A program made the position numbers and the translations under genes. Shown piece by piece: positions 17,007 through 23,603 of a stretch of 35,961 nucleotides of DNA. The DNA comes from Chitinophagaceae bacterium. GTDB lineage: Bacteria > Bacteroidota > Bacteroidia > Chitinophagales > Chitinophagaceae. Each line of letters begins with the position of its first letter. The stretch's first letter is position 1. The notes below the pieces were generated by a model. It ran no database searches. It saw only the letters and a list, made by a program, of their open reading frames with translations, and had not been told where the DNA came from. The stretch is from positions 1 through 35,961 of the forward strand of contig JAGODE010000014.1 of the NCBI GenBank assembly GCA_017998385.1. The letters run 5' to 3'.

Positions 17007-18449
17007 ATGAAAAAGTTTTTAGACGAAAATTTCCTGCTGCGAACCAAAACTGCCCAGCAGCTTTATCACGAATATGCCAAACAGATGCCGGTGATCGATT
17101 ACCACAATCACCTGCCTCCCCAGCAGATTGCCGAAGACAAACAGTTTGGCAATCTTACACAGGCATGGCTGTATGGTGATCATTACAAGTGGAGAGCGAT
17201 GCGAACCAATGGTGTAGACGAAAGCTATTGCACCGGCAACCAGCCTGACCGTGATAAGTTTCAACGCTGGGCCGAGACGGTTCCTTATACGTTGCGCAAT
17301 CCGCTTTATCACTGGACGCACCTCGAATTGCAGCGTTATTTTGGCATCACAGAGATACTCAACCCCGAAAGCGCAGGCCGTATCTACGACCAGTGTACAG
17401 AAATGCTGCAATCGCCCTCGCATTCTGTTCGCCAGTTGCTGCGCATGATGAATGTAAAACTGGTGTGTACCACCGATGATCCTGTTGACACACTTGAGTT
17501 TCATAAACAAATACAGCAAGATGGTTTTGAAATACCTGTATTGCCGGCGTTCAGGCCCGATATGGCTATGCAGGTAAGCCAGCCAACAGTATTTAATAAT
17601 TATGTGCGCAAACTGGAAGGCGCTACGAATATTGCCATTTCTTCCTTCGACGACTTCCTGTATGCCCTTCAGAACCGGCATGACTTCTTTGCATCTATGG
17701 GTTGCATGGTGTCTGATCATGGCCTCGAAGAAATCTATGCCGATGATTTTACCGGCTCTGAAATAGATGCCATCTTTCATAAGATTCATGGTGGCAAAGA
17801 ACTCAATGAAGCCGAGCAACGCAAGTTTCGTTCAGCCATGCTGATTCATTTTGCTGAATGGGATTGGGAAAAAGGATGGGTACAGCAGTTTCACCTGGGT
17901 GCTATGCGCAACAACAACTCCCGTATGATGCAGGAACTGGGTCCTGATACCGGCTGGGACTCAATGGGCGACTTCAAACAGGGACGCAGCCTGGCCCGCT
18001 TCCTAGATAAGCTCGATACCAACAACAAACTCGCCCGCACCATTATTTATAATCTCAACCCGTCTGACAACGCCCTTTTTGCCACTATGATCGGCAATTT
18101 CAATGACGGCTCTGTAGCAGGCAAAATTCAATGGGGTTCGGGCTGGTGGTTTCTTGATCAGAAAGATGGTATGATCAAACAGATCAATACACTGTCGAAT
18201 ATGGGCCTGCTGAGCCGGTTTGTGGGCATGCTCACCGATTCGCGCAGCTTTCTTTCGTTTCCCCGCCATGAATATTTCAGACGGATTTTGTGTGACCTGT
18301 TTGGCGAAGAGATCGAGCAGGGCGAATTACCCAACGACCTGCCATGGGTAGGCAAAGTGATCCAGGATATTTGCTATAACAACAATAAAAATTATTTCAA
18401 CTGGCAACTCAATAGCCAGACGGCAGACCTGAATCAGGCTACCGTTTAA
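17007..18449 (+). CDS. uxaC: Glucuronate/galacturonate isomerase
   Basis: This amidohydrolase-superfamily isomerase converts D-galacturonate to D-tagaturonate (and D-glucuronate to D-fructuronate), the first cytoplasmic step. The protein is 480 residues, close to the E. coli enzyme. VIDYHNHLPP carries the metal-binding His33-x-His35 pair, and the conserved WTHLELQRYFGI and CTTDDPVDTLEFH segments follow. The C-terminal DSRSFLSFPRHEYFRRILC is another family signature. It sits between uxaA and the KduD gene, so the operon order runs B-A-C rather than in reaction order. Confidence 0.95.
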   Translation: MKKFLDENFLLRTKTAQQLYHEYAKQMPVIDYHNHLPPQQIAEDKQFGNLTQAWLYGDHYKWRAMRTNGVDESYCTGNQPDRDKFQRWAETVPYTLRNPLYHWTHLELQRYFGITEILNPESAGRIYDQCTEMLQSPSHSVRQLLRMMNVKLVCTTDDPVDTLEFHKQIQQDGFEIPVLPAFRPDMAMQVSQPTVFNNYVRKLEGATNIAISSFDDFLYALQNRHDFFASMGCMVSDHGLEEIYADDFTGSEIDAIFHKIHGGKELNEAEQRKFRSAMLIHFAEWDWEKGWVQQFHLGAMRNNNSRMMQELGPDTGWDSMGDFKQGRSLARFLDKLDTNNKLARTIIYNLNPSDNALFATMIGNFNDGSVAGKIQWGSGWWFLDQKDGMIKQINTLSNMGLLSRFVGMLTDSRSFLSFPRHEYFRRILCDLFGEEIEQGELPNDLPWVGKVIQDICYNNNKNYFNWQLNSQTADLNQATV

Positions 18450-18459
18450 TTCAAAAAAT

Positions 18460-19230
18460 ATGGGAATACTTCAGCAATTCGATCTCACAGGGAAACAGGC
18501 ACTCGTTACCGGATGCAACAGGGGGATAGGTAAAGCAATGGCGATTGGCCTGGCAGAAGCCGGTGCAGACATCATCGGCGTATCTGCTTCGCTCGAAAGC
18601 AGCGGCAGCGAAATAGAAAAAGCAGTACAGGCACTCGGCCGTAAGTTTACCGCCTACCAGGCAGATTTTTCCAACCGTGATAGTCTCTACGCATTTATTG
18701 AAAAAGTAAAAAATGCACATAGCCGTATCGATATCCTGGTCAACAATGCCGGCACTATCAAACGGGCTCCGGCTGCTGAGCATCCCGATGCAGACTGGGA
18801 TCAGGTGCTTTCTATCAACCTGGATACACCGTTTATACTGGCCCGTGAAATAGGTAAACGAATGCTGGAGCAGGGTAGTGGTAAGATCATTTTCACCTGC
18901 TCACTGCTCAGTTTCCAGGGAGGTATAAATGTACCTGGCTACGCTGCCAGCAAAGGCGCAATTGCCAGCCTGGTAAAAGCACTGGCCAACGAGTGGGCTG
19001 GTAAAGGGATAAATGTAAACGGCATTGCCCCAGGTTATATAGCTACCGATAATACAGAGGCACTGCGGAATGATCCGGTTCGAAGCAAATCGATCCTTGA
19101 TCGCATACCGGCAGGCCGCTGGGGCGAAGCAGATGACCTGAAAGGCGCCACCGTATTCCTGGCCTCGCCGGCAGCTAACTATATACAGGGAACGGTAGTG
19201 ACGGTAGATGGAGGATGGATGGGGAGATAA
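18460..19230 (+). CDS. kduD: 2-deoxy-D-gluconate 3-dehydrogenase / 2,5-diketo-3-deoxygluconate reductase, SDR family
   Basis: It is a short-chain dehydrogenase that would reduce 2,5-diketo-3-deoxygluconate to KDG, the last step of the unsaturated branch. At 256 residues it is typical for the family, with the cofactor motif TGCNRGIG (17-24), NNAG (95-98), Ser148, Tyr161 and Lys165 of the YxxxK catalytic pair. The N-terminal FDLTGKQALVTG and the AAEHPDADWDQVLSINL segment are closest to KduD in the proteins I know. Its assignment is supported by the KduI gene immediately downstream, although a 163-bp repeat-filled spacer separates them. The stop is followed directly by that repeat region. Confidence 0.88.
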   Translation: MGILQQFDLTGKQALVTGCNRGIGKAMAIGLAEAGADIIGVSASLESSGSEIEKAVQALGRKFTAYQADFSNRDSLYAFIEKVKNAHSRIDILVNNAGTIKRAPAAEHPDADWDQVLSINLDTPFILAREIGKRMLEQGSGKIIFTCSLLSFQGGINVPGYAASKGAIASLVKALANEWAGKGINVNGIAPGYIATDNTEALRNDPVRSKSILDRIPAGRWGEADDLKGATVFLASPAANYIQGTVVTVDGGWMGR

Positions 19231-19391
19231 TGTGCTAATGGGTTAATGTGCTGATGTGCTAATGCGATCTTTGCGCCCTTTGTTCGCTTTGCGCCCTTTG
19301 TTCGCTTTGCGCTCTTTGCGATTTAGCCTTTTAAACCTTTTAAACCCTTTATACCCTTTATACTCTTTATACTTTTTAAACTTTTAAACAT
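19231..19391. repeat. Short-period repeat tract (8-bp and 9-bp units) filling the kduD-kduI spacer
   Basis: The whole spacer is low-complexity. At 19233-19264 there are four contiguous 8-bp units (TGCTAATG, GGTTAATG, TGCTGATG, TGCTAATG). At 19270-19323 there are six 9-bp units beginning with TTTG, including two exact 18-bp copies (TTTGCGCCCTTTGTTCGC at 19270-19287 and 19288-19305). From 19329 to 19389 about seven AT-rich units follow (TTTTAAACC, TTTATACCC, TTTATACTC and relatives), keeping a period of about 9. The kduI start codon is 2 bp beyond the end. I see no gene in the tract. A near match to a -7 element (TACTTTTT, 19370-19377) lies inside it. Confidence 0.85.
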
Positions 19392-19393
19392 TC

Positions 19394-20224
19394 ATGGATA
19401 TTCGATTTGGCAACAGCCCTTCTGAAGTGAAGGGGATGACAACAGAACAATTGCGGGAACATTTTTTAATTCAGGGACTCATTGGTCAGGGTGAGGTACG
19501 GCTAACCTATTCGCATTATGACCGGATGATCATTGGTGGTGTGCAACCGGGTACAACGGCTATTGAACTGCCCAATCACCCCGAGTTGCGGGCCGATTAT
19601 TTTCTGGAACGGCGTGAGCTGGGTGTGATTAATGTTGGCGGTGCGGGTATTGTAGTGGCGGATGGGGTAAGCTATGAGTTAAATAAACTCGATGCGGTGT
19701 ATATTGGTAAAGGGACTCGTACCGTGAGCTTTGTAAGCAGCGATGCAGCGTTTCCTGCTGTATTTTATCTGCTCTCGGCGCCGGCCCATCATGAGTATCC
19801 CAATAAACGTTGTACCAAAGAAGAAGCATCGCCTGTGTCGCTGGGCGATATTTCTACTTCCAACAAACGGACTATCTATAAATATATTCATGCCGATGGC
19901 CTGCAAAGTTGCCAGCTGGTGATGGGATTGACCATTCTCGAGGCCGGCAGTGTATGGAATTCGGTGCCGCCACATACACATACCCGCCGTATGGAGGTGT
20001 ATTTTTATTTTGATGTACATCCTGACCATCGTGTATTCCATTTTATGGGCGAGCCGCAGCAGACACGTCATATCACTATGGCCAATCATGATGCCGTAAT
20101 CTCTCCGCCCTGGAGTGTACACTTTGGATGTGGTACAGCCAATTATGGCTTTATCTGGGGCATGGCCGGCGAAAACAAAACATTTACCGATATGGATCCG
20201 GCTCCTGTGGCCACGCTTCTATAG
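19394..20224 (+). CDS. kduI: 4-deoxy-L-threo-5-hexosulose-uronate ketol-isomerase
   Basis: KduI isomerises the linear form of unsaturated galacturonate (DKI pathway) to 2,5-diketo-3-deoxygluconate. The 276-residue length matches E. coli KduI. The zinc ligands expected for this cupin family are visible: His194 and His196 in PPHTHTRRMEVYFYFD, Glu201 in the same block, and His243 in PPWSVHFGCG. The substrate arrives from GH105 and the pectate lyase, and KduD, encoded upstream, takes its product. The gene is preceded by an unusual repeat tract that may hold its own expression signals. KdgK begins 9 bp after its stop. Confidence 0.95.
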   Translation: MDIRFGNSPSEVKGMTTEQLREHFLIQGLIGQGEVRLTYSHYDRMIIGGVQPGTTAIELPNHPELRADYFLERRELGVINVGGAGIVVADGVSYELNKLDAVYIGKGTRTVSFVSSDAAFPAVFYLLSAPAHHEYPNKRCTKEEASPVSLGDISTSNKRTIYKYIHADGLQSCQLVMGLTILEAGSVWNSVPPHTHTRRMEVYFYFDVHPDHRVFHFMGEPQQTRHITMANHDAVISPPWSVHFGCGTANYGFIWGMAGENKTFTDMDPAPVATLL

Positions 20225-20233
20225 ATAATAGCA

Positions 20234-21292
20234 ATGAGTAGTACAGAACAACATATTTATAATGGAGTAAGGCAGGGTACGGTTTGCTGCTTTGGCGAAG
20301 TGCTGCTGCGCTACTCGCCTGCGCTGGAAGGCAAATGGATAAGAGATACTTCTATGGCCGTATACATCGGAGGGGCTGAGCTTAATGCAGCAACTGCACT
20401 GGCCGGCTGGGGATTGCCGGTTAAATATATCACCGCATTGCCCGACAATTACCTGAGCCAGGAGATTGTAGCGGAGGTGGAGCAAAAGAAAATAGATACC
20501 AGCGCAATCATAAAGCGTGGTGAGCGTATAGGAGCTTATTATTTACCGCAGGGCGCGGATCTTAAACATGCCGGCGTTATTTACGACAGAGCCTACTCTG
20601 CATTTGCCGGATTAAAGCCGGATATGATCAACTGGAAAGAAGTGTTGAAAGATTGCGGCTGGTTTCATTTCAGCGCTATCAGCCCTGCGTTGAATGCAGA
20701 CGTGGCAGCAGTATGCCTCGAAGCCGTACAGACTGCTCAAAGCATGGGGTTGACTATTTCTGTAGATCTGAATTACCGCGCTAAATTATGGCAATATGGA
20801 GTAAGCCCCGCAGCAGTAATGCCAGAGCTGGTGAGCTATTGTGATGTTGTAATGGGTAATTGCTGGGCAGCTGAGAGCTTATTGGGAGTGATCTCTCCTA
20901 TTAAAGAAAGCGCGGGCCTCTCTGAAGAGGAGCTGGTACATGCAGCCATGAACAGTATGCGGGATATGAAACTGAGGTTTCCTCAGGTAAAACAAATGGC
21001 TTATACCTTCCGGCTCGCAGATACATACTGGGCGGTTTACCAGGATGAAGGGCGGTTTAAGCGGTCACTCACTTTCCCTATCGGCAAAGTAGTGGATAAA
21101 GTGGGCAGTGGCGATTGTTTTATGGGTGGGATTATTTATGGTATGCAGCAGCAATTGTTGCCGCAGCACCTGATCAACTTTGCTGCAGCGGCAGCTGTGG
21201 GCAAGTTGCATGAAGCAGGTGATGCTACCAGCCAGACAGTGGCTTCCGTTGAAAAAAGATTAGCAGAAATGCAAACGGCTTCGGCCCAATAA
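20234..21292 (+). CDS. kdgK: 2-keto-3-deoxygluconate kinase, PfkB family
   Basis: It phosphorylates KDG, where the saturated and unsaturated branches meet, to KDPG. At 352 residues it is slightly longer than typical sugar kinases because of a 15-residue N-terminal extension before VCCFGEVLLRYSP. The PfkB layout is clear: a GGAELNAATALAGWG segment near residue 46 and the C-terminal anion-hole and catalytic-base motif DKVGSGDCFMGG with Asp294. GSGD in place of the commoner GAGD is seen in other kinases of the group. The stop is immediately followed by the aldolase ATG with no spacer, so the two are probably translated together. Confidence 0.92.
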   Translation: MSSTEQHIYNGVRQGTVCCFGEVLLRYSPALEGKWIRDTSMAVYIGGAELNAATALAGWGLPVKYITALPDNYLSQEIVAEVEQKKIDTSAIIKRGERIGAYYLPQGADLKHAGVIYDRAYSAFAGLKPDMINWKEVLKDCGWFHFSAISPALNADVAAVCLEAVQTAQSMGLTISVDLNYRAKLWQYGVSPAAVMPELVSYCDVVMGNCWAAESLLGVISPIKESAGLSEEELVHAAMNSMRDMKLRFPQVKQMAYTFRLADTYWAVYQDEGRFKRSLTFPIGKVVDKVGSGDCFMGGIIYGMQQQLLPQHLINFAAAAAVGKLHEAGDATSQTVASVEKRLAEMQTASAQ

Positions 21293-23406: not shown

Positions 23407-23426
23407 GTAATGTGTTTTAAGTGCGG

Positions 23427-23456
23427 TAGAAGGTGAAGGGTAGAAGGTAAGGTGAA
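23427..23456. repeat. Purine-rich simple repeat, left copy of an inverted pair
   Basis: The tract is made of GAAGGT and AAGGGT units (for example GAAGGTGAAGGGTAGAAGG). The complementary strand at 23568-23597 carries the close relative GAAGGTAAAGGGTCGAAGG, so the two copies face each other across about 110 bp that contain the terminator palindrome. Confidence 0.6.
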
Positions 23457-23525
23457 TGAATGTGTAAACTGATCAGGTATCCTGAACGTAAATGAGAGAT
23501 ATTCGGATGTAATATCGGAATTAAG

Positions 23526-23566
23526 CGAAGGGGCTGCAATTGCAGCCCCTTCGGTATTCTCTTTTT
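23526..23566. terminator. Bidirectional intrinsic terminator between convergent genes
   Basis: A perfect 28-bp palindrome (23526-23553, arms CGAAGGGGCTGCAA and its exact complement) would fold into a GC-rich stem of at least 12 bp with a 4-nt loop. On the plus strand it is followed within a few bases by a T-rich stretch ending in CTTTTT. It lies 119 bp after the transporter stop and 50 bp beyond the end of the convergent acyl-CoA synthetase gene, so it can serve both. T-richness is much better on the plus side. Confidence 0.85.
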
Positions 23567-23567
23567 A

Positions 23568-23597
23568 CCCTCCGCCTTCGACCCTTTACCTTCCACC
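23568..23597. repeat. Pyrimidine-rich simple repeat, right copy of the inverted pair
   Basis: Read on the minus strand it contains GAAGGTAAAGGGTCGAAGG, matching the left copy at 23427-23456 at all but a few positions. Together with the central palindrome the pair could form one long hairpin. The tract stops just before the acyl-CoA synthetase stop codon. Confidence 0.6.
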
Positions 23598-23603
23598 TCC
23601 CTC

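What the first reader, a model, noticed from the sequence alone, without database searches (positions are those of the whole stretch)
19231..19391. Spacer before kduI is built entirely from 8- and 9-bp periodic repeats
Three sub-tracts share a strong period: four TGCTAATG-like 8-mers, six TTTGCGCCC/TTTGTTCGC-like 9-mers with a perfect 18-bp duplication, and about seven TTTTAAACC/TTTATACCC-like 9-mers ending 2 bp before the start codon. The run interrupts an otherwise tightly packed operon. Repeat number could vary by slippage and change spacing or expression of kduI, kdgK and kdgA, or the tract may belong to a genome-wide family of intergenic repeats.
Basis: partly seen in the sequence, partly recalled or inferred. 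Interest (0 to 1): 0.6.

Follow-up and report, generated by a model that had tools for sequence, protein, structure and literature searches.

The report
Species-specific word repeats between genes
The gap before the sugar-acid gene kduI is stitched from short 8- and 9-letter DNA "words" that recur in dozens of other gaps of the same bacterium, usually pointing the same way relative to the gap's ends, and that are rewritten between sister species while ordinary gaps stay nearly unchanged.

Summary
In detail: the 163-bp kduD-kduI spacer (19231-19393) consists of three short-period arrays, A (TGCTAATG, period 8), B (CTTTGCGNN, 9/18) and C (CTTTAWACY, 9); 0 of 3000 shuffles match it. It is not private to kduI. 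In this Chitinophagaceae genome and a sister species, degenerate 7/8/9-bp arrays of about eight word families fill many spacers and almost no genes (94 and 99 arrays in 0.57 and 1.2 Mb). Three features stand out. (i) Polarity: arrays in the first half of a spacer are G/purine-rich, those in the second half C/pyrimidine-rich, also in other genera with unrelated words. (ii) The two ends often carry matching inverted arms, giving long imperfect hairpins. (iii) Array spacers keep their place between species but are rewritten (median identity 0.60 versus 0.94). At kduI one block is swapped for another family at equal total length. A junction shared only with contig C347 shows ectopic copying. In kind this resembles cyanobacterial STRRs and TAACTGA repeats. 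Slippage control of kduI is untested and has no direct support.

The parts
19228..19264 (+). Array A: TGCTAATG/GGTTAATG/TGCTGATG words, period 8, next to the kduD stop codon (overlaps it), G-rich orientation
   Evidence: TRF; shuffle test; 47 exact 21-mers elsewhere in the genome, control 0
19269..19320 (+). Array B: CTTTGCGCC/CTTTGTTCG words, period 9 with an 18-bp higher-order unit, C-rich orientation
   Evidence: TRF; shuffle test; replaced by family D (TTTGAAAATTTGAAG) in the sister species
19321..19326 (+). Non-repetitive linker ATTTAG; the B-linker-C junction CTTTGCGATTTAGCCTTTTA (19314-19333) recurs once in the genome, at C347:2079-2098
   Evidence: two exact sites, 0 control; alignment
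19327..19389 (+). Array C: CCTTTTAAA/CCTTTATAC words, period 9, ending 4 bp before the kduI ATG, C-rich orientation
   Evidence: TRF; shuffle test; word found in 2 of 197 family genomes only, both of this genus
19231..19393 (+). Whole kduD-kduI spacer: mosaic A-B-C, a spacer with unmatched families in its two halves
18460..19230 (+). kduD, 2-dehydro-3-deoxy-D-gluconate 5-dehydrogenase (flanking gene)
   Evidence: TIGR01832 above cut-off
19394..20224 (+). kduI, 5-dehydro-4-deoxy-D-glucuronate isomerase (flanking gene)
   Evidence: NF002091 above cut-off
23407..23603 (.). Second word-array spacer in the window (convergent genes): GGTAGAAGG-type arm after one stop, CCTTCTACC-type arm before the other, intrinsic-terminator-like hairpin in the loop
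   Evidence: inverted-arm score 18; RNA folding z -7.5; ortholog 282 bp versus 197 bp in G001

Best explanation
The kduD-kduI spacer is one site of a genome-wide, fast-evolving system of short degenerate tandem repeats (7-, 8- and 9-bp words) that fill intergenic spacers in this Chitinophagaceae genus. Shown here: arrays are intergenic; each species has its own vocabulary; the same spacers carry arrays in both sister species but their content is rewritten; composite blocks have been copied between loci; arrays obey a polarity rule (G/purine-rich at the left end of a spacer, C/pyrimidine-rich at the right end when read in gene direction) and often form matching inverted arms. Inferred: arrays lengthen and vary by replication slippage, spread and are kept uniform within a genome by ectopic recombination or template switching between copies, and are tolerated only between genes. 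The polarity and matched arms are most simply explained if the arrays end up as imperfect stem-loops in the RNA or DNA between genes, acting as passive insulating or stabilising structure. The kduI spacer has no matching arms, so for kduI itself the likeliest role is a neutral or weak spacer in the operon mRNA, not a switch.
For: Arrays in spacers versus genes: G000 56 arrays in 39 kb of spacer versus 2 in 478 kb coding, shuffles 0; G001 25 versus 1 in 633 kb. Species vocabulary: C word 35 and 136 times in G000 and G001 and in no other of 197 genomes of the family; A word 47 and 51 times, 0 in congener G002. Turnover: 76 orthologous spacers, array-bearing ones (n=16) median identity 0.60 and length change 50 bp, others (n=60) 0.94 and 0 bp, p=8e-8; array presence in the two species associated, odds ratio 21, p=9e-5. 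Polarity in tandem spacers: G000 24/9 G-/C-rich in first halves versus 0/24 in second, p=7e-9; G001 22/7 versus 2/21, p=1e-6; other genera with unrelated words 18/3 versus 1/17, p=4e-7; array first halves also exceed array-free first halves, p=0.004 and 0.008. Matching arms: 13/24 (permuted 8.7, p=0.04) and 14/24 (permuted 6.8, p=0.0004). Folding z more negative with arrays in both halves: tandem -4.1 versus -1.9, convergent -6.8 versus -3.5. Ectopic copying: B-linker-C junction shared with C347 only. The kduI junction in 70 genomes is 5-60 bp when array-free and holds different vocabularies in different genera when long.
Against: No expression, structure or strain data. Concerted change of both arms is seen in single cases (for example L150_18622) but is not significant over 12 ortholog pairs (within 16.5 versus cross 16.1, p=0.87), and arms of one spacer are hardly more alike than arms of the same family elsewhere, so in-place selection for pairing is not proven. 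Depletion in divergent spacers is significant in G000 (p=0.006) but not in G001 (p=0.23). Part of the C-richness near starts is also seen in array-free spacers. The G000 sample was partly chosen because of repeat hits; the G001 sample was contiguous. The kduI spacer itself does not fold well beyond shuffles (z -2.0).
Confidence: 0.68

Rival explanations
1. Purely neutral or selfish repeats: slippage plus ectopic recombination fill any DNA where insertions are tolerated; polarity and matched arms are by-products of avoiding G near start codons and of the way copies recombine.
For: Array spacers are dispensable: at the kduI junction most relatives have 5-60 bp and no array. Arms of one spacer are not more alike than same-family arms elsewhere. 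Start-proximal C-richness is also present in array-free spacers.
Against: G-richness after stops exceeds array-free spacers (p=0.004, 0.008) and is not explained by start-codon constraints; matching of arms within a spacer exceeds permutation; unrelated vocabularies in other genera obey the same polarity.
Confidence: 0.4
2. A phase-variation or tuning switch for kduI-kdgK-kdgA: slippage in the 8/9-bp arrays alters the spacing or 5' region of kduI and changes operon output.
For: The arrays are long, end 4 bp before the start codon, and such spacers change length quickly between species elsewhere.
Against: The arrays are degenerate (72-85% match for the 8/9-bp periods), which lowers slippage; the spacer is 163 versus 164 bp in the sister species despite block replacement; no Bacteroidetes promoter consensus (TTTG/TAnnTTTG) lies in it; the same arrays occur next to many unrelated genes; kduI is a housekeeping-type catabolic gene.
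Confidence: 0.1
3. REP/BIME-type elements mobilised by a RAYT (Y1 transposase): intergenic inverted repeats spread by a dedicated enzyme.
For: Inverted pairs, intergenic, commoner between tandem and convergent genes than divergent ones in G000.
Against: No Y1_Tnp (PF01797) in G000 (91.6% complete) and one weak match in G001; no fixed 20-40-bp unit with conserved ends, loops are unique sequence and arms vary in word order and length.
Confidence: 0.05
4. Repeat arrays are written by a templated enzyme (reverse transcriptase or telomerase-like) from a few short RNA templates, which would explain species-specific vocabularies and inverted ends.
For: Few word families per genome, sharp species vocabularies, block replacement at conserved sites.
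Against: No candidate enzyme or template was looked for or found; ordinary slippage and recombination suffice; composite junction copying points to DNA-level copying.
Confidence: 0.03

Closest known systems
STRR (short tandemly repeated repetitive) sequences of heterocystous cyanobacteria, including the hairpin-forming STRR between hupS and hupL
   Same: Short degenerate tandem words, intergenic, multicopy, sometimes inside operons and able to form a hairpin; function unknown, transcript stability or translational coupling suggested (PMC2670836).
   Different: Described STRRs are usually 7-bp and cyanobacterial; here 7-, 8- and 9-bp words, many families, fixed polarity relative to spacer ends, in Chitinophagaceae.
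TAACTGA direct repeats (MacGregor 2015, Beggiatoaceae, Cyanobacteria, five Bacteroidetes)
   Same: Intergenic tandem words close to start codons; forward orientation before starts and, in Flexibacter litoralis, one set in reverse orientation just after a stop codon (PMC4679880), which is the polarity seen here. A related family (CAACTGTCAACTG) is among the words here.
   Different: One word with near-exact copies there; here a mosaic vocabulary with degenerate words, matched inverted arms and turnover between sister species.
[quoted passage not shown]
   Same: Hairpin built from degenerate heptanucleotide repeats with copy-number variation among strains (PMC3488679).
   Different: A single intron site in an RNA; here hundreds of intergenic sites.
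REP/BIME/REPIN elements
   Same: Dispersed intergenic palindromic repeats.
   Different: Defined units mobilised by RAYTs; no defined unit and no RAYT in G000 here.

Membership tests
Cyanobacterial STRR sequences | Short tandem units, multicopy, intergenic | tested here: met
Cyanobacterial STRR sequences | Heptanucleotide unit | tested here: not met
   Focal units are 8 and 9 bp; genome-wide G000 periods 7/8/9 = 13/71/10
Cyanobacterial STRR sequences | Occurs in cyanobacteria | tested here: not met
   Closest named relatives of kduI are Chitinophagaceae
TAACTGA repeats | Exact TAACTGA heptamer in direct repeat | tested here: not met
   Focal arrays contain no TAACTGA; a related CAACTGT family occurs elsewhere in the genome
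TAACTGA repeats | Orientation fixed relative to start and stop codons | tested here: met
   Polarity rule; focal spacer has G-rich A first, C-rich B and C later
REP/BIME | Conserved 20-40-bp palindromic unit with a RAYT in the genome | tested here: not met
   (no PF01797 in G000); loops and arms not conserved between loci
Phase-variable simple sequence repeats | Unit number differs among strains and alters expression | not testable with these tools
   No conspecific genomes, reads or expression data
Known RNA families (Rfam 15) | Covariance-model match | tested here: not met
   no match at E<=1 in 18000-20400

The most novel reading that the evidence does not exclude
Word arrays are a general bacterial intergenic architecture: unrelated vocabularies in different genera converge on the same layout (purine-rich array at one end, its pyrimidine-rich reverse complement at the other), because a conserved process or function acts on the layout and not on the sequence, for example a shared RNA-structure role between genes or an enzyme that writes words at gene edges.
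Probability: 0.2. Interest if true: 0.8.

Novelty: new variant of a known kind. Interest (0 to 1): 0.5.

Why it matters
Short degenerate tandem words in bacterial spacers have been noted since the cyanobacterial STRRs but treated one word at a time, mostly without a layout rule. The polarity rule, the matched arms and the contrast between conserved position and rewritten content turn them into something testable across genomes: either a structure whose layout is selected while its sequence is free, or a copying process with a built-in direction. For genome comparison it also means that such spacers are unreliable for promoter prediction or phylogeny, and that repeat tracts before operon genes such as kduI should not be read as switches without strain data.

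Tried and rejected
Bacteroidetes promoter in the spacer: no TTTG-N-TAnnTTTG or TAnnTTTG match on either strand; sigma-70-type scan finds none in the spacer and fewer sites than shuffles in the region. Rfam: none. RAYT/REP: not supported. In-place arm-to-arm copying (palindrome correction): not supported on average, own versus same-family arms 27.3 versus 26.5 (A) and 21.3 versus 20.2 (C), and the concerted-arm test is not significant. Assembly artefact: rejected, because the same spacers carry arrays in a 30-contig sister genome. Horizontal spread as the only source: unclear; A occurs in a few other genera, C only in this genus. Gene calling in G002 failed (17% coding), so it was used only for the kduI locus; the cause was not examined beyond the observation that kduI there is matched in two overlapping pieces. 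Cyanobacterial plasmid records for a cross-phylum test were not in the collection, and a TAACTGA probe found nothing, which may be the low-complexity filter.

Full report
1. Observation. The stretch between kduD (18460-19230) and kduI (19394-20224) contains three arrays: A at 19228-19264 (TGCTAATG-like, period 8/16), B at 19269-19320 (CTTTGCGCC/CTTTGTTCG, period 9 with a perfect 18-bp duplication) and C at 19327-19389 (CCTTTTAAA/CCTTTATAC, period 9). Against 3000 dinucleotide shuffles of the spacer, neither the total nor the best array score was ever reached. The run ends 4 bp before the ATG. Gene names were checked with NCBIfam.

2. Copies elsewhere. BLAST of the spacer region against the own genome gives 105 matches, and the loci inspected were almost all intergenic. 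The exact A 21-mer occurs 47 times in the own genome and 51 times in the sister species G001, the C 23-mer 35 and 136 times, against 0 for the reversed-pattern controls; C is found in no other of 197 genomes of the family, A in 9 others, mostly in small numbers. Reading the spacers shows further families: D TTTGAAGATTTGAAAA, E AGTGGTCAGTGGTC, F CTTAATACTTAAAACTT, G GGTAAAAGGTAGAAGG and a CAACTGTCAACTG family related to TAACTGA. A vocabulary-free detector finds 56 arrays in 39 kb of G000 spacers and 25 in 54 kb of G001 spacers, against 2 in 478 kb and 1 in 633 kb of coding sequence, with 0 and 1 in shuffled spacers. The G000 stretches were partly chosen because they had hits; the 1.2 Mb of G001 are contiguous.

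3. Layout. In tandem spacers, arrays in the first half are G-rich and arrays in the second half C-rich: 24/9 versus 0/24 in G000 (p=7e-9) and 22/7 versus 2/21 in G001 (p=1e-6); the same sign holds in convergent and divergent spacers. Purine counts agree: 42 purine-rich versus 10 pyrimidine-rich in first halves and 1 versus 41 in second halves of G000. Array-free spacers show C-richness near starts but no G-richness after stops, and the array first halves differ from them (p=0.004 and 0.008). In 95 loci of other Chitinophagaceae and a few relatives, whose words are different, the rule holds again: 18/3 versus 1/17, p=4e-7. Where both halves carry arrays, the two often match as reverse complements: 13 of 24 (permuted 8.7, p=0.04) and 14 of 24 (permuted 6.8, p=0.0004). 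Such spacers fold into more stable RNA than shuffles (tandem mean z -4.1 versus -1.9 without arrays; convergent -6.8 versus -3.5). Intrinsic-terminator-like hairpins remain in the loop or beside the arms, for example at window 23407-23603. The focal spacer obeys the polarity (A G-rich first, B and C C-rich later) but its halves do not match (score 7) and its folding z is only -2.0.

4. Turnover. Among 76 orthologous spacers of G000 and G001, the 60 without arrays are 94% identical at the median with no length change; the 16 with arrays are 60% identical with a median change of 50 bp (p=8e-8). Array presence is nevertheless correlated between the two species (odds ratio 21, p=9e-5). So the positions persist while the content is rewritten. 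At kduI, G001 has the same A block at the stop and the same C block at the start, but family D in place of B, at 164 versus 163 bp. G002 of the same genus has quite different words (GATGGTCGATGG ... CATCGGTCATCGATC) as an inverted pair. Of 97 kduI loci, 70 have kduD directly upstream; the junction is mostly 5-60 bp without arrays, and where it is longer it often carries arrays with different words in different genera. Two spacers switch both arms to another family (L150_18622 and, less fully, L223_9220), but over 12 pairs the concerted-arm statistic is not significant.

5. Copying. The B-linker-C junction CTTTGCGATTTAGCCTTTTA, which includes the non-repetitive ATTTAG, occurs exactly twice in G000, at the focal spacer and at C347:2079-2098, and not in G001 or G002 within two mismatches; the alignment extends through A, B and C with a D and A insertion. 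Slippage cannot make a shared unique linker, so DNA has been copied between these loci.

6. Mechanism. Shown: intergenic restriction, vocabularies, polarity, matched arms, turnover and one ectopic copy. Inferred: slippage for growth, recombination or template switching for spread, and a structural role in the intergenic RNA or DNA for the layout. I put about two thirds on this composite account; a fully neutral account with by-product polarity remains the main rival. A kduI switch is unlikely on present evidence: the units are degenerate, the length is the same in the sister species, and no promoter consensus lies in the spacer.

7. Known relatives. Cyanobacterial STRRs are 7-bp tandem words that form hairpins, one of them between hupS and hupL in an operon, with suggested roles in transcript stability or translational coupling (PMC2670836). 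TAACTGA repeats in Beggiatoaceae, Cyanobacteria and five Bacteroidetes sit in forward orientation before start codons and, in one case, reversed after a stop codon (PMC4679880); this agrees with the polarity rule. The Nostoc tRNA-Leu intron P6b stem is a hairpin of degenerate heptanucleotides with variable copy number (PMC3488679). The present repeats work like these but differ in unit length, number of families, taxon and documented layout, so I class them as a new variant of a known kind. Ten literature searches were available and seven were used; no paper describing these words in Chitinophagaceae was found in the open-licence library, which is not proof that none exists.

Noticed in passing
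L150:10297; L218:594; L220:1415; L002:1431; L168:2895 (G001): A dispersed, non-tandem intergenic repeat of about 70 nt (TTGCCGAcCAGCGTTCGGAACcCtGAACCGAGCGTGGCAACAGrCGATGATAGTAGTACTGCAGCtGGGC), palindromic in its core, in some cases beside word arrays, in both sister species.
   Followed up: partly
window 23407-23603: Convergent spacer with GGTAGAAGG-type arms at both stop codons enclosing an intrinsic-terminator-like hairpin GAAGGGGCTGCAATTGCAGCCCCTTC; 282 bp in the sister species.
   Followed up: partly
L150:18623-18734 and its G001 ortholog: Both arms of an inverted spacer are of the AGTGGTC type in G000 and of the GTTGACAG (TAACTGA-related) type in G001: a possible compensatory double change.
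   Followed up: partly
G001 ortholog of L207:18332-18506: A divergent spacer of 175 bp in G000 is a 576-bp higher-order tandem array of CCTTTCACC/GGTAAAAGG blocks in G001.
   Followed up: no
G141:C390:3-135: A run of at least 15 perfect CATTAGCA octamers at a contig end in another genus of the family: an uninterrupted array of family A.
   Followed up: no
L071:3734-4000: The kduI spacer of another Chitinophagaceae MAG (GW715_bin.51) holds a 267-bp inverted pair of TGGTTTAT / ACCAGTAAA words, the largest array seen at this junction.
   Followed up: partly
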